A stretch of DNA of 64,000 bases from Aptenodytes patagonicus (Eukaryota; Chordata; Aves; Sphenisciformes; Spheniscidae), in assembly GCF_965638725.1 (NCBI RefSeq), contig NC_134963.1, positions 15,280,501 through 15,344,500 of the forward strand, in the 5' to 3' direction. The translations under genes and the position numbers were made by a program. A model generated the notes under the pieces. That model was not told the DNA's origin. It did no database searches and was given only the letters and a program-made list of their open reading frames with translations. Shown here piece after piece: positions 26,401 through 55,085 of the stretch. Within the stretch, counting starts at the first letter, position 1; each line of letters starts with the position of its first letter.

Positions 26401-27937
26401 GGGAGTTTCGGTCGTGGGCCAGAGATGAAAGCCACCCCACAGAGGGGCTGCGGGACCCCAGCAGGGTCCTGTGCAGCCGAGCACAGGAACCGCTGTGCCA
26501 CCACGTTCGGGTTCTCGGTGAGCGCGGCCAGGTTAGAAAGCACCAGCCAAACGGCCTGAGCGGGGCCGGGCTCTGAAATCCCCCCACCCACAGCCCCGGC
26601 TCCGCATCAGCCACCTCCACGCCACCACGGCCCTGCCGGCGTCTCCGCAGGGGTCACGGCACCGTCGCGGCCACGCTTCTCCCTGCTCTGCCACCGGTGT
26701 GGGGCCTTGCTCACCCCCGGGGCATCCCAGCCCGCCCAGACCTTCCCTGCCCATCCCGGCCTGCCAACCTCCTGTTGAACCCCAAATCCATCCCCAGCCA
26801 AGTCCCAGCACGCTCCAAGGGGAACCTCTTCCTATGGGGAACCTCTTCCTCTGGGGCTACAACAGACAGGGCCCCGCTCGGCAGCTTTTACTTATACGTA
26901 TTTTTCCCATCTATGAAACATAAATAAATCCAGCTGTTGCTCCCCTTGGCACGGCCTCGCCGCCGTTGCCCCCGGCAGCATCGAGGCTGCAGCTGGCAAA
27001 GCTTCCCCTTCCCACCGGGACTCTCCCTGCTGCCGGGGAAGGCTGGAGGGTTCGAGCAGGCGCTGCATCGCCGCGGCGGAGGAACCGGGGGCGAGGACAC
27101 TGGCCTGCCTCCCGGCGAGAGGCCGGAGCCCGGCCGAGGGGATGCAGCCTGCTCGGGAGGTAGGACCACAGGGGGAAGGATGCGGCCGGGCCGGCGGGGA
27201 TGCTGCCCGGTGGGGAGGGATGCAGGTGGGCTTGAGGGGATGCCGCTCGGTGGGGAGGTAGGAGCCCATGGAAGGGATGCAGCTGGGCCAGGAGGATGCA
27301 GCCCGGCCGAAGCAGGAGCCCAGTGGAAGGGATGCGGCCGAGCCGGGGGGATGCAGCCCCGTGGGGAGGTGGGAGCCCATGGAAGGGATTGCGGCCAGGC
27401 CGGGGGGCTGCAGCCCGGCGGAAGGGATGCAGGCGGGCCGAGGGGATGCAGCCCGCCGGGGTGGTAGGAGCCCGGGGGGGAGTGATGCGGCCGGGCCGGG
27501 AGGATGCTGTGGGGCCGGGGCCGGGCCGGGGGGATACCGGGGGACCGGGACCGGGACCGGGACCGGGCCCCTCCGGGCGCTACCGGCAGGAGGGTTTGGC
27601 GATGCCGGACCCACCTCGGGGCCACCTGCAGAGCGCGCAGCCTCACTCGGGCGCACCGCAGCGCCGCGGGGGAGCCCGGCGCGGCCCGGGGGGGGGGGGG
27701 GGTGGGGGTGGGGGGGTGTTGGGTACTGGGGGGGGGGGGGGGGTGTCGGCGGGCCCCTACCTCCAGGGTGCGGATCTCCTTCTGCGTGAGGTCGTTGGAG
27801 GCGGCGCACTTGGTGCGGAGCCCCTCCAGGTTGGAGATGCTGATGTCGATCATGTTCTGGACCAGCTCGCACTGCTGCAGCGCCTTCTGCAGACTCAGCT
27901 GCTGCTCCTCGCTCCTCGTCATGTTGTCCTCATCCAT
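10966..27937 (-). CDS. KSR2: KSR2, kinase suppressor of Ras 2, 5' four coding exons (partial gene)
   Basis: KSR2 is a pseudokinase scaffold that brings RAF, MEK and ERK together at the membrane. Four exons join in frame: 27761-27937 (177 bp), 20173-20313 (141 bp), 19128-19278 (151 bp) and 10966-11470 (505 bp). All have GT donors and AG acceptors and compatible phases (0, 0, 1, then 2). Together they encode about 324 residues. Exons 1-3 match the N-terminal CA1 region (coiled coil plus SAM-like fold). Exon 4 matches the proline-rich linker, which has many TPP and PPGTPP motifs. The atypical C1 domain and kinase-like domain are not in the window and must lie beyond base 1. The identification rests on recognising the protein sequence; KSR1 is the main alternative, but the exon 4 sequence fits KSR2. 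Confidence 0.95.
12199..12230. repeat. (AAAAAAT)n simple repeat
   Basis: A short A-rich stretch with a T about every eight bases. It sits in the AT-rich part of KSR2 intron 3. Confidence 0.85.
12491..12513. repeat. (CA)n microsatellite
   Basis: Eleven to twelve CA dinucleotides in a row lie within KSR2 intron 3. This is a simple repeat with no coding meaning. Confidence 0.95.
18172..18192. repeat. Poly-G tract
   Basis: This is an uninterrupted run of 21 G on the plus strand inside KSR2 intron 3. It is a likely site of length variation and sequencing error, and it can form a G-quadruplex. Confidence 0.9.
19128..19278 (-). CDS. KSR2: KSR2 coding exon 3
   Basis: This 151-bp exon encodes the rest of the SAM-like part of the CA1 region: [20 protein letters not shown], then [20 protein letters not shown] and a tail ending VHKS. 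It ends one base into a Gly codon, before the donor GTGAGT (19127-19122). The acceptor AG is at 19280-19279. The split codon is completed by the first two bases of exon 4, which confirms that the two exons belong together. Confidence 0.95.
19279..20172 (-). other. KSR2: KSR2 intron 2
   Basis: This short intron (894 bp) lies between exons 2 and 3, with GTAAGG at its 5' end and CAG at its 3' end. It is GC-rich and I see no repeats or further genes in it. Confidence 0.85.
20173..20313 (-). CDS. KSR2: KSR2 coding exon 2
   Basis: This 141-bp exon (47 codons, phase 0 at both ends) encodes [16 protein letters not shown] at its start and [14 protein letters not shown] at its end. The acceptor AG is at 20315-20314 and the donor GTAAGG begins at 20172. 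It continues the CA1 region from coiled coil into the SAM-like fold. The sequence is very close to the known vertebrate protein, with a few conservative changes. Confidence 0.95.
20314..27760 (-). other. KSR2: KSR2 intron 1
   Basis: This is a 7.4-kb GC-rich intron bounded by GTAGGG at 27760 and an AG acceptor at 20315-20314. It holds no exon I can support. It contains a degenerate minisatellite at about 27130-27530 and several G or C homopolymer runs (for example near 21000, 21530 and 21990). The many apparent reading frames are GC-driven and show no family resemblance. An alternative KSR2 first exon is possible but I see no direct sign of one. Confidence 0.8.
27130..27530. repeat. Degenerate GC-rich minisatellite in KSR2 intron 1
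   Basis: Phrases such as GGGATGCAGCC, GGTGGGGAGG and GGAGCCCATGGAAGGGATG recur every 25-75 bases in shuffled order across this stretch. The pattern fits a decayed GC-rich minisatellite. It starts a few hundred bases inside the intron, next to exon 1. It creates long open frames on both strands, which are artefacts. Confidence 0.65.
27761..27937 (-). CDS. KSR2: KSR2 coding exon 1
   Basis: This exon encodes residues 1-59, starting [13 protein letters not shown] and ending KEIRTLE. The ATG is at 27937-27935 in a strong context (G at -3 and at +4). It reads straight into a donor, GAG|GTAGGG, at 27760. Heptad-like leucines and glutamines ([18 protein letters not shown]) fit the coiled-coil part of the CA1 region that helps bind BRAF. 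It lies in a CpG-rich island, as expected for a first exon. The 5' UTR boundary cannot be seen. Confidence 0.95.
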
Positions 27938-28330
27938 CGCTCGCCGCGCCCCCCCTCCCCACCCCCCCACCTCCACCCTCCGCCGCCGCGGCCCCCCCCC
28001 TCCCCTCCCCTGCCCGCCCGCCCCCCCCCCCCCGCGCCGCTCAGCCCCGCTCCGCCGCGGCCCGCAGCATCGCGGCCCCGCGGTGCCCACCGAGCCGTCA
28101 GCGCGGCGCCGCGGCCGCCTCCCCCCCCCCCCCCCGGGCGCGGCGGGGCGGGGGCGGGGGCGGCGCGCTCCGGCACGGCGGGGCCGCGCTCGCTGCGCGC
28201 CGCTCCGCGCGGTAACACCCCCCACCCCCCCCTCCCAATCCCTCCTCCATCCCTCCGCCACCGCGTACCGGCACCCGCCCCCCGGCCCGGGCATGGGGCG
28301 GCGAGGGGAGCGGCGGGTGAGGGGGGGGTA
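27938..28330. promoter_or_regulatory. KSR2: KSR2 5' flank, CpG-rich probable promoter region
   Basis: The 390 bp upstream of the KSR2 start codon are extremely CpG-rich, with repeated GGGGCGG/CCGCCCC-type GC boxes (for example around 28143-28160) and no TATA box. This is typical of a CpG-island promoter. The transcription start cannot be placed from sequence alone. Confidence 0.55.
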
Positions 28331-29370
28331 GTGGGGGGGCTGCTGCAATGGGGGGCCCTGCTGCAATGGGGGACACTGCAGCGGGGGGGGGGGACGGGAC
28401 CTGGGGCAATGGGGGGGGCCGGGGGGGGGCCTGGGGCAATAGGGGTCCCTGCTGCAACAGGGGTCCCTGCTGCAATGGGGGGCTCTGCTGCAATGGGGGG
28501 GCCCTGCTGCAATGGGGGGGGCTGCTGCAATGGGGGGGGCCCTGCTGCAATGGGGGGCCCTGCTGCAATGGGGGACACTGCAGCGGGGGGGGGGGACGGG
28601 ACCTGGGGCAATGGGGGGGGCGGGGGGGGGCCCTGGGGCAATAGGGGTCCCTGCTGCAATAGGGGTCCCTGCTGCAATGGGGGGCCCTGCTGCAATGGGG
28701 GGGGGGCTGCTGCAATGGGGGGCCCTGCTGCAATGGGGGACACTGCAGCGGGGGGGGGGGAACGGGACCTGGGGCAATGGGGGGGGCGGGGGGGGGGGGC
28801 CTGGGGCAATAGGGGTCCCTGCTGCAATAGGGGTCCCTGCTGCAATGGGGGGCCCTGCTGCAATGGGGGGGGGGCTGCTGCAATGGGGGGCCCTGCTGCA
28901 ATGGGGGGGGCTGCTGCAATGGGGGGCCCTGCTGCAATGGGGGACACTGCAGCGGGGGGGGGGACGGGACCTGGGGCAATGGGGGGGGCAGGGGGGGGGC
29001 CTGGGGCAATAGGGGTCCCTGCTGCAATAGGGGTCCCTGCTGCAATGGGGGGCTCTGCTGCAATGGGGGGCCCTGCTGCAATGGGGGGGGGCTGCTGCAA
29101 TGGGGGGGGCCCTGCTGCAATGGGGGGCCCTGATGCAATGGGGGGCCCTGATGCAATGGGGGGGGGCTGCTGCAATGGGGATCCCTGCCGCAATTGGGGT
29201 GCAGCTGCAATGGGAGGCCCTGCTGCAATGGGGGGACGATGACACTGCTGCAATGGGGGTCCCTGCTGCAATTGGGGTGCAGCTGCAATGGGGGGACGAT
29301 GACACTGCTGCAGTGGGGGGGTTCTGCTGCAACGGGGGTTCCTGCCGCAACAGGGAGCCCTGCTGCAGAG
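28330..29370. repeat. G-rich minisatellite with higher-order structure upstream of KSR2
   Basis: The basic unit is about 17 bases (GGGGGGCCCTGCTGCAAT and variants), repeated dozens of times. Larger blocks are also repeated: the phrase CACTGCAGCGGGGG followed by GACGGGACCTGGGGCAAT begins near 28374, 28576, 28741 and 28945, giving blocks of about 165-204 bp. Both strands are open for hundreds of codons because the unit lacks stops in several frames. These frames are low-complexity artefacts. The G runs are dense enough for G-quadruplexes. Confidence 0.9.
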
Positions 29371-29835
29371 GCGGCCAGGCCAGGCTGTGTTGTGTGTGAC
29401 TGCAGGGCAGGAGCAGCAGGTGCAGGTGGGGGGGTACAGGGGATGTGCACCCCCAAAGGCCTAAGGAAGCCATATTGGGGTGCAACGGGGAACTGTGCTG
29501 CAGCCCCCACTGCGGAAGAAACAGGGCAGGATTCACATCACTGGGGGTGAGGAGGGGCCAGTTCCCCCCAGCTGCCCTCCCACCCCACGACCCCTCCTGG
29601 CACAGAGGGGATGCCAATGTTGCTCAGGGCCAGGCCAAATCCTGCCTCACCCTATGGACCCCAAGGGTCGCACAAAAGGGGACGAGCAGGGAGGGCAGCC
29701 GGGACGGAAAGCTGCAGCAGGATCCAGGGAAAGCCAAGGAGGGACCCTGTGGTCCCTGCTGTAGCAACGGGATTTGGCCTGAAAGGGAGCAAAACCAAAT
29801 AAAATCCGAGCTGCCACGCACCACAGCATGCCTCC

Positions 29836-32377: not shown

Positions 32378-32712
32378 TATATGAGGCAGCTGAGGGAGGA
32401 TGAGAGTTTCATAGCTAAAAATCCTAATTTTGCTTTACCCTAACACCAACATATCCTCATATGCTTCAATCCTAAAAAGAGGATCCTTTTATGAAGAGGA
32501 CCCTTATTCTTTTAATCCTAAAGACAATAGATCCTTATATCCTTTGGTGTATAAAAATCCTAATTTTGCTTTAATTCTCAACCTGTGCTCTGTATGAAGG
32601 GCTGAGGGAGGAGGAGGGCAGTTTGGGTTTGGTATATAAGAAGAAAGGAAGGGGAGGAAGAAAGCACAGCTCCCCCGGGGACTTTGTCAGGCCAATCAGG
32701 AGATGGCGGCCT

Positions 32713-32908
32713 CATAGGATCATCGACTCACAGAATGGCTGGGGTTGGAAAGGACCTTTAAAGATCACCTAGTCCAACCCCCCACCACGGGCAGGGACGT
32801 CTTCAACTAGAGCAGGTTGCTCAGAGCCCCGTCCAACCTGGCCTTGAACACTTCCAGGGATGGGGCATCCACAACCTCTCTGGGCAACCTGGGCCAGGGT
32901 CTCACCAG
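32713..32908 (-). mobile_element. CR1 3' tail in array unit 1
   Basis: This is a minus-strand CR1 fragment of about 195 bp: the ORF2 end plus the 3' UTR (CTTTAAAGGTCCTTTCCAAC) and a terminal ATTCTGTGAGTCGATGATCC tail. It lies directly downstream of the candidate gene and is present in all three units, so it predates the array. Confidence 0.9.
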
Positions 32909-33112
32909 CCCCACGAGCGGAGGCAGTTCCCTCGGCCTGCCCTCGTGCGCCCCGGCCCCTCACCATCCCGAAGGCCCTGGGCTGGGCCCGCACCCCACGC
33001 ACCAGTGTCTTTCCTGGGCTGGGGAGACCAGGAGGGGACAGAGGAGTCCAGATGCAGTTGCCAAAGTACCAAATAAGAGAGAGGGAAAGCATTTTTGCCG
33101 TTACTTTCTTGG

Positions 33113-33118
33113 TTTATT
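33113..33118 (-). terminator. AATAAA poly(A) signal of candidate array gene, copy 1
   Basis: AATAAA on the minus strand, 21 bp beyond the TAA at 33139-33141. It lies between the reading frame and the CR1 tail, where a short 3' UTR would end. Confidence 0.5.
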
Positions 33119-33138
33119 GGTGGGGTTTTAATTTTCTG

Positions 33139-33465
33139 TTACCCAATCTTGAAAAGAACTAACGAAGCAGCTAGCAGGGGCCTTAATGCTGAAGGCCAGC
33201 ACTTCTTCCTGGCAGACCTGCGGTCTTCTGCTTCTCCAGAGGAGCGGCTGTCTCTCTGACGCCTCTTCTTGATCCGTTGCTGTTCTTCCTGCACCAGCGC
33301 AGAGGGTCTGGCTTCATCTCCAACCTCCCGCCGGGCAGCCTTCTCGTCCTCAGGCCGAAGAAACCCTACCTCCAGGCCCCAGGGACCTCGGTGGCCCTCT
33401 GAGGGACTTCTCCCGGCGCAGGAGCCCGGCGGAAGCCATGTTGTCTCATACCCTTTTTCTTGGGG
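33139..33465 (-). CDS. Candidate array gene, copy 1, possible second exon (108 aa)
   Basis: Reading in the same frame as the upstream ORF, this stretch gives PQEKGYETTWLPPGSCAGR, then FLRPEDEKAARREVGDEARP, QEEQQRIKKRRQRDSRSSGE and a tail ending AASLVLFKIG and TAA. A pyrimidine-rich run ending in CTCTGAG at 33466 could be a phase-0 acceptor. ATGGAG|GTGGAT at 33685/33684 could be a phase-0 donor. Splicing there would remove the in-frame TAG and give about 180 residues. An AATAAA follows the stop by 21 bp. The splice sites are an inference without transcript data. Confidence 0.4.
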   Translation of the reverse strand, partial: PQEKGYETTWLPPGSCAGRSPSEGHRGPWGLEVGFLRPEDEKAARREVGDEARPSALVQEEQQRIKKRRQRDSRSSGEAEDRRSARKKCWPSALRPLLAASLVLFKIG

Positions 33466-33546
33466 CTCAGAGCAGAGGAGATGGCACCCCTTCAGAAGGG
33501 GTGGGGGTAGGGGAGAGGGTGGGGGACGGGCGGGTAGGCCTCCCGG

Positions 33547-33900
33547 CTAGTGCCAGGTGCGGAGGCCGGGCCGAGGGTAGGGCGCTGGCCGGGCGCTCCT
33601 GCGGCACCGCGTCGCTGGTCTTGTGGAGGGGAGCCCTGGCACGATGTGGTGGTGCCAGGGGAGCCATCCTGGAGGTGGATCCACCTCCATCAGCTCCTCC
33701 TCATCTCCAGGTGGATCCACCTCCATGGGCTCCACACCATCAGCTACATGAGCGATGGCCATCGCTGCCATGTAGCTGATGGTGCCTCCCGTCTGACGCC
33801 GCCTCTTCCTCTGCGCCTCCCGCAGTCGCTTCTCTGGTTGCCCACGCAGAGGTGGGCACCCGCTCGCTCCGCTGCTGTGGGTCCTCTTTCTTCCAACCAT
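33547..33900 (-). CDS. Candidate array gene, copy 1, 5' reading frame (117 aa)
   Basis: I do not recognise this protein. The frame starts MVGRKRTHSSGASG, then has a very basic stretch (KRLREAQRKRRRQ), a hydrophobic turn (ISYMAAMAIAHVADG) and an acidic duplication, EPMEVDPPGDEEELMEVDPP, then a Pro/Arg-rich tail and TAG. A TATAAATA box lies 58 bp upstream of the ATG and the context CCACGATGG is good. In this copy the second codon differs from copies 2 and 3 (Val, not Met-Ser). The frame stays open after the TAG to a TAA at 33139. The basic stretch suggests nuclear location, which is an inference. It could also be a decayed gene fragment. Confidence 0.5.
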   Translation of the reverse strand: MVGRKRTHSSGASGCPPLRGQPEKRLREAQRKRRRQTGGTISYMAAMAIAHVADGVEPMEVDPPGDEEELMEVDPPPGWLPWHHHIVPGLPSTRPATRCRRSARPAPYPRPGLRTWH

Positions 33901-33957
33901 CGTGGAGGTCGAGGGCCCGGAAGCTCAGCGAATGTGGGCCAGCTGCTGGGGGCCCGG

Positions 33958-33965
33958 TATTTATA
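33958..33965 (-). promoter_or_regulatory. TATA box of candidate array gene, copy 1
   Basis: The minus strand reads CCCTATAAATACC, a close match to the TATA consensus, 58 bp before the ATG, so transcription would start about 30 bases before the ATG. Some 35 bp further upstream lies TGACATCA or its complement (33998-34005), one base from a CRE site. The same arrangement is kept in units 2 and 3. Confidence 0.55.
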
Positions 33966-35034: not shown

Positions 35035-36520
35035 CATGGGGGCAGGGGGGAGTGAGCGAGCGGCTGTGTGGTGCTTAGTTGCCGGCTGGGGTTAAACCAC
35101 AACAGTCCTTTTTGGTGCCCAACGTGGGGCTCAAAGGGTTCGAGATAACGACAGGTTTGATTGGAATGTGCTAGATCAAATTTACAGCTGTTATTGCTGT
35201 TTAGCCATTAATCGGCAGGCGCCTGTGCTTGCCGTGGGGCTTGCTCGCCTTACTGTATGTTGGAGTCTAGTGCTCATTAGTGGCTGCTTTTTGCTTTCGC
35301 TGCTTGCTGCACTGCTGTGCTGCTGATCATCTTACTGCGCTGTGCCTGGGAACATTTTGATAACAGCCATGGCCATGCGCCTGGGCTGGCAGATGGCCGG
35401 GGCATCGCTGCCGTTCCTGTGCTGCTGTACCGGACAGGCTGGAACTCCAGCGTGAGCTCGAGTCGAAGGGACTGTGACCTGTGGATGAGTCCACGCGGGA
35501 GCAGGTACATCTCGAAGCGTCTGTGGCCGTGGTTATGTCTGTGCCGCAGCAGGTCCACCTCTGAAGGGATTGTGGCCCAAGGATAAGTCCATGCTGGAGA
35601 AGGTGCACCTCGAAGCGTCTGTGGTTGTGGATAAGTCCATGCTGCAGCAGGCACACCTTGAAGCATCAGGGGCTGTGCATGAGGTCATGCTGGAGCGCCT
35701 CAAAGCGTGTGGCCATGGATAAGCCCACGACAGACCCTGGAGGGGCTGCAGCCATGGGTAAGGCCATGTTGGAGCAGGTTCACTTCTGAAGGGACTGTGG
35801 CTGTGGGTAAGGCCACGCTGGAGCAGGTGTATCTCTGAAGGCATTGTGGCCCATGGAGAAGGCCACGCTGGGACAGGCGCGCCTCAAAGCGACTGTGGCT
35901 GTGGATAAATCTATGCTGCAGCAGGTACACCCCTGGAGAGACTGTGGCTCACAGATAAGGCTCCACTTGGAGCGGGTACGCCCCTAAGGGACTGCAGTCT
36001 GCGGATAAGTCCAAGCCGGAGCAGGGGCAAGGGGAGGAGTTCACTGCAACGTTAAACCCGATGGTCTGGCCCGAAGGGACCAGGGGTGGAGATTGTAATG
36101 GAAATACCTTTAAACTGTTGTAACCCGGGATTTGAGTTGCATGTTACAGGAATTACTATAGCAGGAACCGCCTGTGCCAGTGGAGGACAAGCCTTACAAG
36201 AAGCAGGGCAGGTGCAGCAGCGACCCGACCTGAGCTGGCTTTGGGGCCCAGTTACTCCACGCAACACACCACCTCTCCTGTCCTGAGTGACCACCATCAC
36301 AGGTGGAGCCCAAAGCCACGGACTAAATGAACTCAGTGGACATTTTGTGGGCATTTAAAAGACATTTTACAGACACTGCACAGGGGTGGTCCACAGACTA
36401 AGGGAATGATAACTGCGTATTATGTCAAAGGGTGGGAAGGGGGGGGGTGGTTAGTGAGGATGTATCGGATAGTGTGGGACCTGAGCAGGATGTACATGGT
36501 ACGGAATAAGGGGTGGGGAA
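35035..36520 (+). mobile_element. Deleted endogenous retrovirus in unit 1: truncated 5' LTR, PBS, leader repeats, polypurine tract
   Basis: Only the last 70 bp of a 5' LTR remain (to ACCACAACA at 35104). Eight bases on is TGGTGCCCAACGTGGGGC (35113-35130), one mismatch from a tRNA-Lys primer binding site, which points to a class II (ERVK-like) element. The internal 1.4 kb has no gag, protease, polymerase or envelope frame. It consists of leader repeats and a short 3' region ending in the purine tract AATAAGGGGTGGGGAA just before the 3' LTR. It is a non-autonomous, internally deleted element. Confidence 0.8.
35468..36027 (+). repeat. Leader minisatellite in retroviral remnant, unit 1
   Basis: Degenerate repeats of about 48-60 bp of the form GTGGATAAGTCCATGCTG, GAGCAGGTACACCTC, GAAGCGTCTGTGGC. 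The length is about 560 bp here, against 569 bp in unit 2 and 617 bp in unit 3; the differences are whole repeat units gained or lost. Confidence 0.8.
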
Positions 36521-41349: not shown

Positions 41350-41587
41350 TCCGCCTTGAGGGTCGGGTAGGATGAGTGCCCTTATAGATAGATCCTTATA
41401 AATAGATCCTTATGCCCTTTGGTGTATAAAAATCCTAATTTTGCTTTAATTCTCAACCTGTGCTCTGTATGAAGGGCTGAGGGAGGAGGAGGGCAGTCTG
41501 GGTTTGGTATATAAGAAGAAAGGAAGGGGAGGAAGAAAGCACAGCTCCCCCGGGGACTTTGTCAGGCCAATCAGGAGATGGCGGCCT

Positions 41588-41783
41588 CATAGGATCATCG
41601 ACTCACAGAATGGCTGGGGTTGGAAAGGACCTTTAAAGATCACCTAGTCCAACCCCCCGCCACGGGCAGGGACGTCTTCAACTAGAGCAGGTTGCTCAGA
41701 GCCCCGTCCAACCTGGCCTTGAACACTTCCAGGGATGGGGCATCCACAACCTCTCTGGGCAACCTGGGCCAGGGTCTCACCAG
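41588..41783 (-). mobile_element. CR1 3' tail in array unit 2
   Basis: This is the unit 2 counterpart of the fragment at 32713, nearly identical, lying between the spacer and the candidate gene. Confidence 0.9.
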
Positions 41784-41987
41784 CCCCACGAGCGGAGGCA
41801 GTTCCCTCGGCCTGCCCTCGTGCGCCCCGGCCCCTCACCGTCCCAAAGGCCCTGGGCTGGGCCCGCACCCCACGCACCAGTGTCTTTCCTGGGCTGGGGA
41901 GACCAGGAGGGGACAGAGGAGTCCAGATGCAGTTGCCAAAGTACCAAATAAGAGAGAGGGAAAGCATTTTTGCCGTTACTTTCTTGG

Positions 41988-41993
41988 TTTATT
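41988..41993 (-). terminator. AATAAA poly(A) signal of candidate array gene, copy 2
   Basis: It lies 21 bp after the TAA stop on the minus strand, identical in placement to copy 1. Confidence 0.5.
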
Positions 41994-42013
41994 GGTGGGG
42001 TTTTAATTTTCTG

Positions 42014-42340
42014 TTACCCAATCTTGAAAAGAACTAACGAAGCAGCTAGCAGGGGCCTTAATGCTGAAGGCCAGCACTTCTTCCTGGCAGACCTGCGGTC
42101 TTCTGCTTCTCCAGAGGAGCGGCTGTCTCTCTGACGCCTCTTCTTGATCCGTTGCTGTTCTTCCTGCACCAGCGCAGAGGGTCTGCCTTCATCTCCAACC
42201 TCCCGCCGGGCAGCCTTCTCGTCCTCAGGCCGAAGAAACCCTACCTCCAGGCCCCAGGGACCTCGGTGGCCCTCTGAGGGACTTCTCCCGGCGCAGGAGC
42301 CCGGCGGAAGCCATGTTGTCTCATACCCTTTTTCTTGGGG
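42014..42340 (-). CDS. Candidate array gene, copy 2, possible second exon
   Basis: This is the counterpart of 33139-33465, in the same frame as the upstream ORF, ending at TAA (42014-42016). One replacement is visible against copy 1: VGDEGRPS for VGDEARPS. The AATAAA signal at 41988-41993 is kept. The splice acceptor at 42341 is an inference. Confidence 0.4.
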   Translation of the reverse strand, partial: PQEKGYETTWLPPGSCAGRSPSEGHRGPWGLEVGFLRPEDEKAARREVGDEGRPSALVQEEQQRIKKRRQRDSRSSGEAEDRRSARKKCWPSALRPLLAASLVLFKIG

Positions 42341-42421
42341 CTCAGAGCAGAGGAGATGGCACCCCTTCAGAAGGGGTGGGGGTAGGGGAGAGGGTGGGGG
42401 ACGGGCGGGTAGGCCTCCCGG

Positions 42422-42778
42422 CTAGTGCCAGGTGCGGAGGCCGGGCCGAGGGTAGGGCGCTGGCCGGGCGCTCCTGCGGCACCGCGTCGCCGGTCTTCTG
42501 GAGGGGAGCCCTGGCACGATGTGGTGGTGCCAGGGGAGCCATCCTGGAGGTGGATCCACCTCCATCAGCTCCTCCTCATCTCCAGGTGGATCCACCTCCA
42601 TGGGCTCCACACCATCAGCTACATGAGCGATGGCCATCGCTGCCATGTAGCTGATGGTGCCTCCCGTCTGACGCCGCCTCTTCCTCTGCGCCTCCCGCAG
42701 TCGCTTCTCTGGTTGCCCACGCAGAGGTGGGCACCCGCTCGCTCCGCTGCTGTGGGTCCTCTTTCTTCCACTCATCAT
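42422..42778 (-). CDS. Candidate array gene, copy 2, 5' reading frame (118 aa)
   Basis: This is the same unrecognised protein as at 33547, starting MMSGRKRTHSSGASG. It differs from copy 1 at the start (MMS for MV) and by LPSRRPATR for LPSTRPATR in the tail. TATA box at 42833-42840, in-frame TAG at 42422-42424. The two ATG codons in tandem make the exact start uncertain by one residue. Confidence 0.5.
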   Translation of the reverse strand: MMSGRKRTHSSGASGCPPLRGQPEKRLREAQRKRRRQTGGTISYMAAMAIAHVADGVEPMEVDPPGDEEELMEVDPPPGWLPWHHHIVPGLPSRRPATRCRRSARPAPYPRPGLRTWH

Positions 42779-42832
42779 GGAGGTCGAGGGCCCAGAAGCT
42801 CAGCGAATGTGGGCCAACTGCTGGGGGCCCGG

Positions 42833-42840
42833 TATTTATA
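42833..42840 (-). promoter_or_regulatory. TATA box of candidate array gene, copy 2
   Basis: TATAAATA on the minus strand, 55 bp upstream of the first ATG, in the same context as in unit 1. Confidence 0.55.
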
Positions 42841-43907: not shown

Positions 43908-45403
43908 ACATGGGGGCGGGGGGGAGTGAGCGAGCGGCTGTGCGGTGCTTAGTTGCCGGCTGGGGTTAAACCACAACAGTCCTTTTTGGTGCCCAACGTG
44001 GGGCTCAAAGGGTTCGAGATAACGACAGGTTTGATTGGAATGTGCTAGATCAAATTTACAGCTGTTATTGCTGTTTAGCCATTAATCGGCAGGCGCCTGT
44101 GCTTGCCGTGGGGCTTGCTCGCCTTACTGTATGTTGGAGTCTAGTGCTCGTTAGTGGCTGCTTTTTGCTTTCGCTGCTTGCTGCACTGCTGTGCTGCTGA
44201 TCATCTTACTGCGCTGTGCCTGGGAACATTTTGATAACAGCCATGGCCATGCGCCTGGGCTGGCAGATGGCCGGGGCATCGCTGCCGTTCCTGTGCCGCT
44301 GTACCGGACAGGCTGGAACTCCAGCGTGAGCTCGAGTCGAAGGGACTGTGACCTGTGGATGAGTCCACGCGGGAGCAGGACACCCCGAAGCGTCTGTGGC
44401 CGTGGATAAGCCCAGGCCAGAGCAGGTACATCTCGAAGCGTCTGTGGCCGTGGTTATGTCTGTGCCGCAGCAGGTCCACCTCTGAAGGGATTGTGGCCCA
44501 AGGATAAGACCATGCTGGAGAAGGTGCACCTTGAAGCATCAGGGGCTGTGCATGAGGTCATGCTGGAGCGCCTCAAAGCGTGTGGCCATGGATAAGCCCA
44601 CGACAGAGCAGGTACACCCCTGGAGGGGCTGCAGCCATGGGTAAGGCCATGTTGGAGCAGGTTCACTTCTGAAGGGACTGTGGCTGTGGGTAAGGCCACG
44701 CTGGAGCAGGTGTATCTCTGAAGGCATTGTGGCCCATGGAGAAGGCCACGCTGGGACAGGTGCGCCTCAAAGCGACTGTGGCTGTGGATAAGTCTATGCT
44801 GCAGCAGGTACACCCCTGGAGAGACTGTGGCTCACAGATAAGGCTCCACTTGGAGCGGGTACGCCCCTAAGGGACTGCAGTCTGCGGATAAGTCCAAGCC
44901 GGAGCAGGGGCAAGGGGAGGAGTTCATTGCAACGTTAAACCCGATGGTCTGGCCCGAAGGGACCAGGGGTGGAGATTGTAATGGAAATACCTTTAAACTG
45001 TTGTAACCCGGGATTTGAGTTGCATGTTACAGGAATTACTATAGCAGGAACCGCCTGTGCCAGTGGAGGACAAGCCTTACAAGAAGCAGGGCAGGTGCAG
45101 CAGCGACCCGACCTGAGCTGGCTTTGGGGCCCAGTTACTCCACGCAACACACCACCTCTCCTGTCCTGAGTGACCACCATCACAGGTGGAGCCCAAAGCC
45201 ACGGACTAAATGAACTCAGTGGACATTTTGTGGGCATTTAAAAGACATTTTACAGACACTGCACAGGGGTGGTCCACAGACTAAGGGAATGATAACTGCG
45301 TATTATATCAAAGGGTGGGAAGGGGGGTGGTGGTTAGTGAGGATGTATCGGATAGTGTGGGACCTGAGCAGGATGTACATGGTACGGAATAAGGGGTGGA
45401 GAA
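43908..45403 (+). mobile_element. Deleted endogenous retrovirus in unit 2: truncated 5' LTR, PBS, leader, polypurine tract
   Basis: The 5' LTR stub ends at 43978 and the PBS-like sequence is at 43987-44004. The leader minisatellite occupies about 44342-44910, followed by the same non-coding 3' region and purine tract before the LTR at 45404. No retroviral protein frame survives. Confidence 0.8.
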
Positions 45404-45998: not shown

Positions 45999-46228
45999 TA
46001 TATGAGGCAGCTGAGGGAGGAGGAGAGTGGTTCCGTATCTAAAAATCCTAACTTTGCTTTAACCCTAATGCTAATATATCCTCATATGCTTTAATCCTAA
46101 AAGGAGGATCCTTTTAGGAAGAGGATCCTTATAGCCTTTTAATCCTAAAGCAAATAGATCCTTTTATTCCTAAAGGAAATAGAATCCTCATAGAACAGTT
46201 TGGGTTGGAAGGGACCTCTAAAGTCCAT

Positions 46229-48941
46229 CTAGTCCAACCCCCCTGCCATGGGCAGGGACATCTTCAACTGGATCAGGTTGCTCAGAGCCCCGTCCAACCT
46301 GACCTGGAATGTTTCCAGGGATGGGGCATCCACCACCTCTCTGGGCAACCTGGGCCAGTGCTTCACCACCCTCAGCATAAAAAATTTCTTCCTTATATCT
46401 AGTCTAAATCCACCCCCCTTTAGTTTAAAGCCATTCCCCCTTGTCCTGTCGCAACAGGCCCTGCTAAAAAGTCTGCCGCCATCTTTTTTATAAGCCCCCT
46501 TTAAGTACTGACAGGCCGCAATAAGGTCTCCCCAAAGCCTTCTCTTCTCCAGGCTGAACAACCCCAACTCTCTCAGCCTTTCTTCACAGCAGAGGTGTTC
46601 CATCCCCTGATCATTTTCGTGGCCCTCCTCTGGGCCCGCTCCAACAGGTCCGTGTGTGTCTCATGCTGAGGGCTCCAGAGCTGGACGCAGGGCTCCAGGT
46701 GGGGTCTCAGCAGAGCAGAGCAGAGGGGCAGAATCCCCTCCCTCGACCTGCTGGCCACGCTGCTTTGGATGCAGCCCAGGAGACGATTGGCCTTCTGGGC
46801 TGCGAGCGCACATTGCCAGCTCAAGTCCAGCTTTTCATCCCCCAGTACCCCCAAGTCCTTCTCAGCAGGGCTGCTCTCAAGCCCTTCACCCCCGAGCCTG
46901 GATTGATACTGGGGGCTGCCCCGACCCAGGTGCAGGACCTTGCGCTCGGCCTTGTTCAACCTCATGAGGTTCACACAGGCCCACTTCTCCAGCTTGTCCA
47001 GGTCCCTCTGGATGGCATCCCGTCCCTCTGGCGTGTCGACCGCACCGCTCAGCTTGGTGTCATCTGCAAACTTGCTGAGGGTGCACTCGACCCCACTGTC
47101 TGTGTCACTGATGAAGTTATTAAACAGTACCGGTCCCAATACGGACCCCTGCGGGACGCCACTTGTTACCAATCTCCATCTGGACATTGAGCCGTTGACC
47201 ACTACCCTCTGGATGCAACCATCTAACCAATTCCTCACCCACCAGACAGTCCACCCATCAAATCCATACCTCTCCAGTTTAGAGAGAAGGATGTTGTGGG
47301 GGACTGTGTCAAAGGCCTCACAGAGGTCCAGATAGACGACATCTGTAGCCCTTCCCGTGTCCACTGATGTAGTCACTCCATCATAGAAGGCCACGTGGTT
47401 GGTCAGGCAGGACTTGCCCTTGGTGAAGCCATGCTGGCTGTCTCGAAGCACCTCCCTGTCTTCCATGTGCCTTAGCATAGCTTCCAGGAGGATCTGCTCC
47501 ATGACCTTCCCAGGCACAGAGGTGAGACTGACTGGCCTGTAGTTCCCCGGGTCTTCCTTTTTTCCCTTTTTAAAAAGGGGGGTTATGTTCCCCCTTTTCC
47601 AGTCAGTGGGAACTTCACCGGACTGCCACGACTTCTCAAATACAATGGAGAGTGGCTTAGCAACTTCATCCACCAGTTCCTTCAGGACCCACGGATGGGT
47701 CTCATCAGGTCCCATGGACTTGGGCACCTTCAGCTGCCTTAGATGGTCTCGAACCTGATCTTCTCCTATAGTGGGTGGCTCTTCATTCTCCCAGTCCCCG
47801 CCTTTGCCTTCTGCGGCTCGGGCGGTGAGGCTCGAGCACTTGCCGGGGAAGACCGAGGCAAAAAAGTCATTGAGTACCTCTGCCTTCTCCGTGTCCCGGG
47901 TAACCAGGTCTCCCGTTTCATTCCAGAGAGGGCCCACATTTTCCCCCATCTTCCTTTTATCTCCAACGTACCTATAGAATCTTTTCTTGTTGCCCTTGAC
48001 GTCCCTGGCCAGATTTAATTCTATCAGGGCTTTAGCTTTCCTAATCTGGTCCCTGGCTGCTCTCGGACAATTTCTCTTATTCCTCCCAGGCTACCTGTCC
48101 TTGCTTCCACCCTCTGTAGGCTTCCTTTTTGTGTCGGAGTTTGTGCAGGAGCTCCTTGTTCATCCACACAGGCCTCCTGGCGTTTTTGCCTGACTTCCTC
48201 TTTGTTGGGATGCATCGCTCCTGAGCTTGGAGGAGGTGAGCCTTGAATATCACCCAGCTTTCTTGGGCCCCTCTTCCCTCCAGGGCTTTGTCCCATGGCT
48301 CTCTGCCAAGCAGATCCCTGAAGAGGCCAAAGTCCGCTCTCCTGAAGGCCAGGGTAGTGAGCTTGCTGTGCACCCTCCTCGGTGCCCTAAGGGTCTTGAA
48401 CTCCACCATTTCGTGGTCACTGCAGCCCAGGCTGCCCTTGAGCTTCACATTCCCCACCAGCCCCTCCTTGCTGGTGAGAACAAGGTCCAGCATAGCACCC
48501 CTCCTCGTTGGCTGCCGTGTTGTCCCTCCAACAGATGTTGGGGTGGTTGAAGTCCCCCATGAGGACCAGGGCTTGTGAGCGTGAGGCTGCTCCTATCTGT
48601 CTACAGAGGGCCTCCTCCACTCAGTCTTCCTGGTCAGGTTGCCTGTAGCAGACCCCCACTGTAATGTCACCTGTCCCTGCCCTCCCTTTCATTCTGACCC
48701 ACAAGCTCTCGGTCGGCTCCTCATCCATCCCCAGGCAGAGCTCCGTGCACTCCAGCTGGTCATTGACATAGAGGGCGACACCCCCTCCTTGTCTCCCCTG
48801 CCCGTCCTTCCTAAAGAGCCTGTATCCCTCCATCCCAACACTCCAATCGTAGGAGCCATCCCACCATGTCTCTGTGATGCCAATAAGGCCGTAGCCCTGC
48901 AGGCATGTGCACGTCTCTAACTCCTCTTGTTTATTCCCCAT
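46229..48941 (-). pseudogene. CR1 ORF2, unit 3 (broken, long intact reverse transcriptase stretch)
   Basis: The endonuclease is in pieces (48621-48941, 48417-48620, 48077-48493) with the same in-frame TGA as unit 2. The reverse transcriptase is open for 458 codons (46573-47949), from [20 protein letters not shown] through [55 protein letters not shown] and [12 protein letters not shown] 1-bp deletion near 46604 then shifts the frame into the C-terminal 124 codons (46229-46603). It is inactive, but better preserved than unit 2. Confidence 0.9.
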
Positions 48942-50236: not shown

Positions 50237-50474
50237 TCCGCCTTGAGGGTCGGGTAGGATGAGTGCCCTTATAGATAGATCCTTATAAATAGATCCTTAT
50301 GCCCTTTGGTGTATAAAAATCCTAATTTTGCTTTAATTCTCAACCTGTGCTCTGTATGAAGGGCTGAGGGAGGAGGAGGGCAGTCTGGGTTTGGTATATA
50401 AGAAGAAAGGAAGGGGAGGAAGAAAGCACAGCTCCCCCGGGGACTTTGTCAGGCCAATCAGGAGATGGCGGCCT

Positions 50475-50670
50475 CATAGGATCATCGACTCACAGAATGG
50501 CTGGGGTTGGAAAGGACCTTTAAAGATCACCTAGTCCAACCCCCCGCCACGGGCAGGGACGTCTTCAACTAGAGCAGGTTGCTCAGAGCCCCGTCCAACC
50601 TGGCCTTGAACACTTCCAGGGATGGGGCATCCACAACCTCTCTGGGCAACCTGGGCCAGGGTCTCACCAG
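50475..50670 (-). mobile_element. CR1 3' tail in array unit 3
   Basis: Third copy of the short CR1 fragment, downstream of candidate gene copy 3. Confidence 0.9.
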
Positions 50671-50874
50671 CCCCACGAGCGGAGGCAGTTCCCTCGGCCT
50701 GCCCTCGTGCGCCCCGGCCCCTCACCGTCCCGAAGGCCCTGGGCTGGGCCCGCACCCCACGCACCAGTGTCTTTCCTGGGCTGGGGAGACCAGGAGGGGA
50801 CAGAGGAGTCCAGATGCAGTTGCCAAAGTACCAAATAAGAGAGAGGGAAAGCATTTTTGCCGTTACTTTCTTGG

Positions 50875-50880
50875 TTTATT
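50875..50880 (-). terminator. AATAAA poly(A) signal of candidate array gene, copy 3
   Basis: It lies 21 bp after the TAA stop on the minus strand, as in the other two copies. Confidence 0.5.
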
Positions 50881-50900
50881 GGTGGGGTTTTAATTTTCTG

Positions 50901-51227
50901 TTACCCAATCTTGAAAAGAACTAACGAAGCAGCTAGCAGGGGCCTTAATGCTGAAGGCCAGCACTTCTTCCTGGCAGACCTGCGGTCTTCTGCTTCTCCA
51001 GAGGAGCGGCTGTCTCTCTGACGCCTCTTCTTGATCCGTTGCTGTTCTTCCTGCACCAGCGCAGAGGGTCTGCCTTCATCTCCAACCTCCCGCCGGGCAG
51101 CCTTCTCGTCCTCAGGCCGAAGAAACCCTACCTCCAGGCCCCAGGGACCTCGGTGGCCCTCTGAGGGACTTCTCCCGGCGCAGGAGCCCGGCGGAAGCCA
51201 TGTTGTCTCATACCCTTTTTCTTGGGG
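50901..51227 (-). CDS. Candidate array gene, copy 3, possible second exon
   Basis: Same frame and length as in copies 1 and 2, ending TAA at 50901-50903 with AATAAA at 50875-50880. It reads VGDEGRPS as in copy 2. The basic RIKKRRQRDSRSSGEAEDRR segment is unchanged in all three copies. Confidence 0.4.
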   Translation of the reverse strand, partial: PQEKGYETTWLPPGSCAGRSPSEGHRGPWGLEVGFLRPEDEKAARREVGDEGRPSALVQEEQQRIKKRRQRDSRSSGEAEDRRSARKKCWPSALRPLLAASLVLFKIG

Positions 51228-51308
51228 CTCAGAGCAGAGGAGATGGCACCCCTTCAGAAGGGGTGGGGGTAGGGGAGAGGGTGGGGGACGGGCGGGTAGG
51301 CCTCCCGG

Positions 51309-51665
51309 CTAGTGCCAGGTGCGGAGGCCGGGCCGAGGGTAGGGCGCTGGCCGGGCGCTCCTGCGGCACCGCGTCGCTGGTCTTGTGGAGGGGAGCCCTG
51401 GCACGATGTGGTGGTGCCAGGGGAGCCATCCTGGAGGTGGATCCACCTCCATCAGCTCCTCCTCATCTCCAGGTGGATCCACCTCCATGGGCTCCACACC
51501 ATCAGCTACATGAGCGATGGCCATCGCTGCCATGTAGCTGATGGTGCCTCCCGTCCGACGCTGCCTCTTCCTCTGCGCCTCCCGCAACTGCTTCTCTCGT
51601 TGCCCACGCAGAGGTGGGCACCCGCTCGCTTCGCTGCTGTGGGTCCTCTTTCTTCCACTCATCAT
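51309..51665 (-). CDS. Candidate array gene, copy 3, 5' reading frame (118 aa)
   Basis: It starts MMSGRKRTHSSEASGC and keeps the acidic MEVDPP duplication and the Pro/Arg tail. Against copy 2 it has five replacements within the first 40 codons (Gly-Glu, Pro-Arg, Arg-Gln, Arg-Gln and Gln-Arg) and only one silent change there. The rest of the frame is nearly unchanged. TATA box at 51720-51727 and the same in-frame TAG. Confidence 0.5.
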   Translation of the reverse strand: MMSGRKRTHSSEASGCPPLRGQREKQLREAQRKRQRRTGGTISYMAAMAIAHVADGVEPMEVDPPGDEEELMEVDPPPGWLPWHHHIVPGLPSTRPATRCRRSARPAPYPRPGLRTWH

Positions 51666-51719
51666 GGAGGTCGAGGGCCCAGAAGCTCAGCGAATGTGGG
51701 CCAACTGCTGGGGGCCCGG

Positions 51720-51727
51720 TATTTATA
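51720..51727 (-). promoter_or_regulatory. TATA box of candidate array gene, copy 3
   Basis: TATAAATA on the minus strand, 55 bp upstream of the first ATG, as in copy 2. Confidence 0.55.
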
Positions 51728-53535: not shown

Positions 53536-55085
53536 CCATCCCACCGGGGGCGGGGGGGAGTGAGCGAGCGGCTGTGCGGTGCTTAGTTGCCGGCTGGGGT
53601 TAAACCACAACAGTCCTTTTTGGTGCCCAACGTGGGGCTCAAAGGGTTCGAGATAACGACAGGTTTGATTGGAATGTGCTAGATCAAATTTACAGCTGTT
53701 ATTGCTGTTTAGCCATTAATCGGCAGGCGCCTGTGCTTGCCGTGGGGCTTGCTCGCCTTACTGTATGTTGGAGTCTAGTGCTCGTTAGTGGCTGCTTTTT
53801 GCTTTCGCTGCTTGCTGCACTGCTGTGCTGCTGATCATCTTACTGCACTGTGCCTGGGAACATTTTGATAACAGCCATGGCCATGCGCCTGGGCTGGCAG
53901 ATGGCCGGGGCATCGCTGCCGTTCCTGTGCCGCTGTACCGGACAGGCTGGAACTCCAGCGTGAGCTCGAGTCGAAGGGACTGTGACCTGTGGATGAGTCC
54001 ACGCGGGAGCAGGACACCCCGAAGCGTCTGTGGCCGTGGATAAGCCCAGGCCAGAGCAGGTACATCTCGAAGCGTCTGTGGCCGTGGTTATGTCTGTGCC
54101 GCAGCAGGTCCACCTCTGAAGGGATTGTGGCCCAAGGATAAGTCCATGCTGGAGAAGGTGCACCTCGAAGCGTCTGTGGCTGTGGATAAGTCCATGCTGC
54201 AGCAGGCACACCTTGAAGCATCAGGGGCTGTGCATGAGGTCATGCTGGAGCGCCTCAAAGCGTGTGGCCATGGATAAGCCCACGACAGAGCAGGTACACC
54301 CCTGGAGGGGCTGCAGCCATGGGTAAGGCCATGTTGGAGCAGGTTCACTTCTGAAGGGACTGTGGCTGTGGGTAAGGCCACGCTGGAGCAGGTATATCTC
54401 TGAAGGCATTGTGGCCCATGGAGAAGGCCACGCTGGGACAGGCGCGCCTCAAAGCGACTGTGGCTGTGGATAAGTCTATGCTGCAGCAGGTACACCCCTG
54501 GAGAGACTGTGGCTCACAGATAAGGCTCCACTTGGAGCGGGTACGCCCCTAAGGGACTGCAGTCTGCGGATAAGTCCAAGCCGGAGCAGGGGCAAGGGGA
54601 GGAGTTCATTGCAACATTAAACCCGATGGTCTGGCCCGAAGGGACCAGGGGTGGAGATTGTAATGGAAATACCTTTAAACTGTTGTAACCCGGGATTTGA
54701 GTTGCATGTTACAGGAATTACTATAGCAGGAACCGCCTGTGCCAGTGGAGGACAAGCCTTACAAGAAGCAGGGCAGGTGCAGCAGCGACCCGACCTGAGC
54801 TGGCTTTGGGGCCCAGTTACTCCACGCAACACACCACCTCTCCTGTCCTGAGTGACCACCATCACAGGTGGAGCCCAAAGCCACGGACTAAATGAACTCA
54901 GTGGACATTTTGTGGGCATTTAAAAGACATTTTACAGACACTGCACAGGGGTGGTCCACAGACTAAGGGAATGATAACTGCGTATTATGTCAAAGGGTGG
55001 GAAGGGGGGGGGTGGTTAGTGAGGATGTATCGGATAGTGTGGGACCTGAGCAGGATGTACATGGTACGGAATAAGGGGTGGGGAA
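53520..55085 (+). mobile_element. Deleted endogenous retrovirus in unit 3: truncated 5' LTR, PBS, leader, polypurine tract
   Basis: The 5' LTR stub is slightly longer than in units 1-2 and ends at 53612. The PBS-like sequence is at 53621-53638. The leader minisatellite (about 53976-54592) is the longest of the three and holds both repeat units that are individually missing from units 1 and 2. It ends in the same purine tract before the LTR. Confidence 0.8.

What the first reader, a model, noticed from the sequence alone, without database searches (positions are those of the whole stretch)
33113..33965. Unrecognised TATA-driven small gene repeated in every unit of the array
The sequence shows, on the minus strand and in the same places in all three units, TATAAATA, a short leader, a 117/118-codon frame, a further in-frame open stretch, TAA and AATAAA 21 bp later (copies at 41988-42840 and 50875-51727). 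The product would be basic (KRLREAQRKRRRQ, RIKKRRQRDSRSS) with a duplicated acidic MEVDPP motif. I know no family with this combination. A complete promoter-to-poly(A) layout in a tandem array suggests a lineage-specific amplified gene, possibly germline-expressed. The function is unknown.
Basis: partly seen in the sequence, partly recalled or inferred. Interest (0 to 1): 0.82.

Follow-up and report, generated by a model that had tools for sequence, protein, structure and literature searches.

The report
Unnamed multicopy TATA-driven bird gene family
The three repeated small genes belong to an uncharacterised, fast-changing bird gene family that carries its own promoter, is scattered over several chromosomes in front of the tail of a mobile element, and has a longer relative repeated about eighty times in a row elsewhere in the same genome.

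Summary
The layout is real: TATAAATA, ATG, a 117/118-codon frame and AATAAA in all three units. It is not confined to this array. The same genome holds 8 copies on C15, 18 dispersed copies with the 5' half on C1, C2, C6 and C7, of which 12 keep the frame, and a C2 array of 80 units of about 2.5 kb encoding a longer relative of about 282 aa without a stop. Relatives occur in crane, stork, godwit, antbird, goose, swan and duck, and the window subfamily has a crane member. No Pfam family above cutoff or PDB chain matches. Selection on the frame is modest: omega 0.665 (2dlnL 8.1), but 0-fold and 4-fold sites change at similar rates; triplet indels are slightly enriched (p 0.049). In six locus groups with an uninterrupted tail, homology ends at a CR1 LINE 3' terminus, suggesting dispersal by CR1 machinery. 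I read it as a fast-evolving, mostly disordered, probably nuclear, perhaps germline protein family. Expression is untested.

The parts
33958..33965 (-). TATA box TATAAATA, 65 bp upstream of the ATG, unit 1
   Evidence: a TATA-type site near -65 in 12 of the 15 sequences scanned (9 TATAAATA, 1 TATAGATA, 2 TATAAAAA in the C2 array and C2:60.48); none by that pattern in L016, L021, L024
33547..33900 (-). 117-aa frame (with stop codon), unit 1
   Evidence: homologues in other birds
33735..33784 (-). 50-nt near-perfect palindrome inside the frame (RNA hairpin -34.5 kcal/mol)
   Evidence: no covariation beyond shuffles
   Evidence: open in all three units; its last 51 codons carry stops in 13 of 13 non-C15 copies that have them
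33113..33118 (-). AATAAA poly(A) signal, unit 1
32712..32910 (-). CR1 LINE tail (end of ORF2 plus 3' terminus), unit 1
   Evidence: translates to RLPREVVDAPSLEVFKARLDGALSNLL; 4031 first-look candidates in the genome, 40 scored
34023..34024 (-). place where 16 of 18 dispersed copies hold 22 bp more and one 23 bp more; the extra holds CCATATTTGG (CArG-like, recalled motif) in many copies, absent in the C15 copies scanned
41988..42840 (-). unit 2 gene, TATA to AATAAA; 118-aa frame 42422-42778
41587..41785 (-). CR1 tail, unit 2
50875..51727 (-). unit 3 gene, TATA to AATAAA; 118-aa frame 51309-51665
50474..50672 (-). CR1 tail, unit 3
46576..48090 (-). open frame of a CR1-type LINE with a reverse transcriptase domain; the same kind of tail follows at 46187-46372
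   Evidence: (RVT_1, E 1.1e-27)

Best explanation
The three units carry members of an avian multigene family: short genes, apparently uninterrupted, each with its own TATA promoter and poly(A) signal. They encode small, fast-evolving and mostly disordered proteins with a basic N-terminal helix (KRLREAQRKRRRQ, a plausible nuclear-localisation or nucleic-acid-binding segment), a repeated acidic-proline motif (EPMEVDPP...EELMEVDPPP) and a conserved tail (VPGLPS...RSARPAPY.RP). Shown: the family, its frames, its spread over several birds and its copy numbers. Inferred: that it is transcribed, that the protein acts in the nucleus (basic part on chromatin or nucleic acid, MEVDPP motif as a partner-binding element) at a dose set by copy number, most likely in germ cells or the early embryo. 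Spread had two modes: tandem or segmental duplication (C15, C2, C6, C7 clusters) and, inferred, dispersal of copies that end in a CR1 3' tail, using CR1 reverse transcriptase.
For: Layout. Frame kept in 12 of 18 dispersed copies, in 8 of 8 C15 copies with no stop and in 80 of 80 C2 units without a stop. Relatives in crane, stork, godwit, antbird, goose, swan and duck (some weak, e.g. swan E 1.5e-4). The window subfamily includes a crane protein (support 100/99) and the C2:77.9/79.0 subfamily another (92/98, below the tool's star). The goose and swan models start upstream and contain PYKYR or AYKYR, which is what a TATAAATA region would translate to, fitting an old promoter (my reading). Codon model on 13 sequences: omega 0.665 against 1, 2dlnL 8.14 (p about 0.004 by my arithmetic). 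Indels of three: 10 of 19 in the frame against 16 of 57 in flanks, p 0.049, and frameshifting events per base half those of flanks. C2 array against C2:60.48: 6 of 6 gaps in the frame are multiples of three; the 198 bp before the ATG are 90% identical against 79% for the frame. Model mostly low-confidence with a helix at 21-37, pLDDT 65, pTM 0.18.
Against: No expression data. The frame diverges faster than most of its flanks (mean p-distance 0.171 against 0.130-0.149; only the 65-bp TATA-ATG stretch is higher, 0.184). 0-fold sites change nearly as fast as 4-fold sites: 0.172 against 0.185, or 0.123 against 0.141 with CpG-prone sites masked; by transversions 0.074 against 0.052 unmasked, the wrong way round, and 0.056 against 0.057 masked. 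By region (masked) residues 1-40 look constrained (0.144 against 0.298) but the conserved core 55-92 does not (0.101 against 0.051). For the C2 pair omega is about 0.70, and one wrong frame gives about 0.55. For the window/C1:68.9 pair, neutral drift would leave no stop with probability 0.12-0.14, not unusual. 6 of 18 dispersed copies are broken. Proteins from other birds were found because they are open frames, a bias. Nuclear and germline roles rest on composition and analogy.
Confidence: 0.58

Rival explanations
1. A non-autonomous, CR1-tailed retroposon: the unit spreads selfishly through CR1 machinery and the frame is cargo, or was once a gene but is no longer selected in most copies.
For: In the six locus groups with an uninterrupted tail (C15, C1:68.9, C1:130.6, C2:77.9, C2:79.0, C6), homology between groups stops at the CR1 3' terminus while 5' limits vary. 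The tail is CR1. Amino-acid change is near neutral.
Against: C2:60.48 and the C2 array lack this tail directly behind the gene yet keep frames; open frames exist in other birds; copies include the promoter and up to about 1.4 kb of upstream DNA, more than a TATA-started transcript would hold; target-site duplications were not tested; C2:77.66/77.93 and the C6 pair share flanks and are DNA-level duplicates, as the C7 clustering also suggests.
Confidence: 0.25
2. Old pseudogene or noncoding repeat; open frames survive by chance because copies are GC-rich and partly young.
For: GC-rich DNA gives long frames on both strands; simulated neutral copies keep start and frame without stops at 0.33 for a branch of 0.1 changes per site; weak omega, and 0-fold and 4-fold rates alike.
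Against: Frame kept in many lineages and birds, frameshifts half as frequent as in flanks, 6 of 6 triplet gaps in the C2 pair, chance of no stop along the C2 pair path 0.02-0.05, promoter better conserved than the frame in that pair.
Confidence: 0.15
3. Long terminal repeat or other viral regulatory block, since TATA and AATAAA flank the unit.
For: TATA and poly(A) signal order.
Against: 853 bp from TATA to AATAAA with a frame kept in many copies; no common 5' boundary; the shared 3' boundary is a CR1 terminus.
Confidence: 0.02

Closest known systems
VCX/VCY and SPANX families of primates (recalled, not compared here; one search gave only a listing)
   Same: Small charged proteins, basic N-terminal part then an acidic part, multicopy and fast-evolving; germline there (recalled)
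   Different: No sequence relation tested; those are mammalian X/Y-linked genes; this family is avian, on contigs C1, C2, C6, C7 and C15, TATA-driven and apparently uninterrupted
Gene-bearing macrosatellites such as D4Z4/DUX4 and RS447/USP17 (recalled; DUX4 reviews seen only in the listing)
   Same: Each tandem unit carries a complete uninterrupted gene; tens of units
   Different: No relation found by Pfam; the bird unit is about 2.5 kb in the C2 array
CR1-tailed SINEs such as TguSINE1 (PMC3747384, passages and a table excerpt seen)
   Same: Homology ends at a CR1 3' tail, as for elements thought to borrow LINE reverse transcriptase
   Different: Here the passenger is a protein-coding frame with its own TATA promoter rather than a tRNA-type RNA; retroposition is inferred only
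Unnamed annotated relatives: Grus japonensis GRJ2_001281100 and a crane protein labelled EF-hand calcium-binding domain-containing protein 6, Anser LOC125179780, Cygnus LOC121065891
   Same: Homologous over diagnostic motifs
   Different: Labels are uninformative or look wrong; the two LOC numbers are in no paper held

Membership tests
Unnamed avian MEVDPP family (my label) | Basic N-terminal segment, repeated EPMEVDPP-type motif, VPGLPS and PAPY.RP tail | tested here: met
Unnamed avian MEVDPP family (my label) | Groups with other birds' members in a tree | tested here: met
   window clade with crane P0003 and unnamed P0001, P0004, P0005 at 100/99
Unnamed avian MEVDPP family (my label) | Transcribed and translated | not testable with these tools
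   no RNA or peptide data
Any Pfam or PDB family | Match above threshold | tested here: not met
   one hit below cutoff, DUF7196 (14.8 against 27 bits), for P0001
CR1-mobilised non-autonomous element | Ends at the CR1 3' terminus | tested here: met
   six of six locus groups with an uninterrupted tail; seven C7 copies have a further CR1 piece there
CR1-mobilised non-autonomous element | 5' truncation at variable points | tested here: inconclusive
   5' limits of pairwise homology vary from about -240 to about -1450, but divergence and segmental duplication also give this
CR1-mobilised non-autonomous element | Target-site duplications or empty sites | not tested
   not searched; no other assembly of a related bird at hand
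VCX/SPANX-like germline proteins | Germline-restricted expression | not testable with these tools
   no expression data
microRNA hairpin | Conserved base-paired precursor | tested here: not met
   pairing 89.4% against a shuffled mean of 88.9%; Rfam hits all below gathering scores
LTR of an endogenous retrovirus | Defined ends common to copies | tested here: not met
   no common 5' end; the common 3' end is CR1

The most novel reading that the evidence does not exclude
A host gene with its own promoter gained a downstream CR1 tail and so became a self-dispersing gene cassette in birds, a lineage in which retrocopies are rare, which has been laid to CR1; a relative then expanded into an 80-unit protein-coding macrosatellite.
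Probability: 0.28. Interest if true: 0.78.

Novelty: new variant of a known kind. Interest (0 to 1): 0.6.

Why it matters
A bird gene family with no Pfam model, whose members in one genome range from single copies to an 80-unit array, seems to have gone unnamed. If expressed, it is a bird counterpart of the amplified, fast-evolving germline families of mammals and a candidate for dosage or conflict effects. If the CR1 tail explains its spread, it shows how a gene can escape the bar that CR1 is thought to put on retrocopying in birds: 78 retrocopies were found in chicken in PMC3136929 (passages seen).

Tried and rejected
Second open stretch as coding: rejected for its last 51 codons, stops in 13 of 13 non-C15 copies that have them; some unnamed open frames do run across this part (P0016, P0029, P0030), which I read as chance extension. 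Coding-region hairpin as conserved RNA: very stable in the window copy (-34.5 kcal/mol, z -7.4; 6 copies folded), but on 11 copies no covariation beyond shuffles. LTR reading: rejected. dN/dS as decisive proof: not decisive. Indel counts: a first count with inflated gap lengths gave 7 of 19 in the frame against 12 of 55 in flanks; a mixed recount gave p 0.014, 6-of-6 p 0.0001 and a frameshift deficit p 0.012; the uniform recount is 10 of 19 against 16 of 57, p 0.049, and I rely on that one. Pfam scan of 10 other long frames of the window: one reverse transcriptase, nine without a match. No tRNA in the window. Paper searches, judged by their listings, showed nothing on this family. Species not identified; 'bird' rests on the relatives and the CR1 repeats.

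Full report
Observation. On the minus strand each unit is an 853-base block from TATAAATA to AATAAA with an ATG and a 117- or 118-codon frame. In unit 1 the ATG has A at -3 and G at +4. A frame of this length is not remarkable in such GC-rich DNA: the other strand has 138 codons open. The evidence must come from copies.

Copies in the same genome. The DNA search gave 79 matching pieces, with 40 of 123 candidates scored, so this is a lower bound. A protein search gave 36 matches, 150 of 229 candidates scored. C15 holds 8 copies: three in the window, one at 13.93 Mb, one at 14.64 Mb, three at 16.10 Mb. Outside C15 I read 18 dispersed copies that retain the 5' half: C1 two, C2 three, C6 two, C7 eleven. 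One C3 locus and two further C2 loci hold only parts. 12 of the 18 keep one open frame from the start codon to the conserved end (one reads on, one has lost 87 nt); 6 of 18 are broken. On C2 at 72.09-72.30 Mb there are 80 units of about 2.5 kb (82 rows, two units split), none with a stop, encoding a longer relative of about 282 aa; the unit read has TATAAAAA at -67. A relative of 190 aa lies at C2:60.48 Mb, and one with two stops at C2:76.36 Mb.

Other birds. A profile search found 77 proteins at E up to 10. Named sources are Grus japonensis, Mycteria americana, Willisornis vidua, Limosa lapponica, Anser cygnoides, Anas platyrhynchos and Cygnus olor; most other hits are from unnamed contigs, and the weakest hits may be chance. 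The goose model keeps MLGSKRSQSRKMGGCPSL, EEPMEVDPP and RSAWTAPYARRSL; the swan model keeps the first two and lacks the tail; they contain PYKYR and AYKYR, what a TATAAATA region would give (my reading). In a tree of 27 proteins (6 of 24 inner branches starred) the window clade holds a crane protein and three unnamed ones (100/99), and the C2 clade another crane protein (92/98, not starred). If this bird is not itself a crane, and 68% identity makes that unlikely, at least the window subfamily predates the split from cranes. Pfam: 0 families for the window protein; of 8 other members one has a hit below cutoff. PDB: none at E up to 1.

Selection. Pairwise dN/dS ran from 0.40 to 0.74 over 21 pairs. 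The codon model gave omega 0.665, 2dlnL 8.14 against omega 1. Against this, 0-fold and 4-fold sites change at similar rates (0.172 against 0.185; CpG-masked 0.123 against 0.141); unmasked transversions even run the other way (0.074 against 0.052; masked 0.056 against 0.057); the frame diverges more than most flanks. Of the regions only residues 1-40 look constrained in the masked count. Indels of three are 10 of 19 in the frame against 16 of 57 in flanks (p 0.049), and frameshifting events per base are half those of the flanks. For C2 array against C2:60.48, 6 of 6 gaps in the frame are multiples of three, the 198 bp before the ATG are 90% identical without gaps, and the frame is 79% identical. 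Simulated neutral drift leaves no stop with probability 0.02-0.05 along that path, but 0.12-0.14 for window against C1:68.9. I conclude that the frame is probably held open by selection while its residues change fast; this is not proven.

Second stretch and hairpin. After one TAG the frame stays open for about 135 codons in the three window units. Its last 51 codons are open in 6 of 6 C15 copies read and closed in 13 of 13 others that have them. A 50-nt palindrome inside the frame folds strongly but shows no covariation beyond shuffles, and the Rfam hits are below their gathering scores.

CR1 tail. Within about 200 bases after AATAAA the aligned copies run into a CR1 LINE end; 16 of 18 dispersed copies match the window at least to the middle of it, L021 less far and L026 not at all. 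It translates to RLPREVVDAPSLEVFKARL, has 4031 first-look candidates in the genome with 40 scored, and the window's own reverse-transcriptase LINE (46576-48090) is followed by the same kind of tail. In the six locus groups with an uninterrupted tail, homology between groups stops at that terminus and the DNA beyond differs. Within groups, C2:77.66 and 77.93, and the two C6 copies, share flanks and so are DNA-level duplicates. Seven C7 copies have a further CR1 piece there and share about 1.3 kb more. The C2 array and C2:60.48 share the poly(A)-side sequence but not this tail, so the tail was probably gained in the dispersed branch. Pairwise 5' limits vary. This resembles elements that borrow LINE machinery through a shared tail (PMC3747384, passages). 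It would matter because chicken has few retrocopies, which has been laid to CR1 (PMC3136929, passages). I rate this inference at about 0.28: upstream DNA and the promoter are included, and target-site duplications were not tested.

Promoter. 16 of 18 dispersed copies have 22 bp, and one 23 bp, that the window units lack at about 34024; 9 of the 15 sequences scanned hold CCATATTTGG upstream, the C2 array among them, both C15 copies not. The window copies may therefore be regulated differently.

Protein. The model has mean pLDDT 65 and pTM 0.18, with helices at 21-37 and 43-53: mostly without a confident fold, with a basic helix. The proposed role (nuclear, basic part on nucleic acid or chromatin, MEVDPP as a docking motif, dose by copy number, germline or early embryo) is inference from composition and from recalled analogues (VCX, SPANX, DUX4, USP17).

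Verdict. Most likely a real, unnamed, multicopy avian gene family, of which the window array is one modest branch. Expression is the missing proof. On checking I lowered the best reading from 0.60 to 0.58 and raised the chance reading from 0.13 to 0.15, because the unmasked transversion count and the window/C1 simulation had been left out.

Noticed in passing
G000:C2:72090829-72304205 (L028, L034, L035): 80 tandem units of about 2.5 kb, each with an open frame of about 282 aa of the same family; frame length varies by a few codons, in L028 in a poly-arginine run.
   Followed up: partly
window 46576-48090 (-): Long open frame of a CR1-type LINE with reverse transcriptase domain in unit 2; the list of long frames shows only shorter pieces in the same region of unit 1.
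   Followed up: no
window 35463-36029, 44337-44880, 53971-54562: Degenerate 48/98-bp minisatellite in every unit of the array.
   Followed up: no
window 33735-33784: 50-nt near-perfect palindrome within the coding frame; strongest in the window copy of the six folded.
   Followed up: yes
P0007, P0082: Family members in public annotation carry unlikely names (EF-hand calcium-binding domain-containing protein 6 in crane, re1-silencing transcription factor-like in godwit).
   Followed up: partly
G000:C33: Many of the 40 scored CR1-tail matches lie on C33, which may be a repeat-rich sex chromosome (guess).
   Followed up: no
P0045, P0046, P0054, P0059, P0074, P0075: Short proteins of 69-126 aa with repeated EPMEVD-type motifs but no VPGLPS tail, two of them from duck: perhaps a second branch, perhaps chance similarity for the weakest.
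   Followed up: partly
window 26891-29623: GC-rich tandem repeats with very long open frames on both strands, probably composition only.
   Followed up: no
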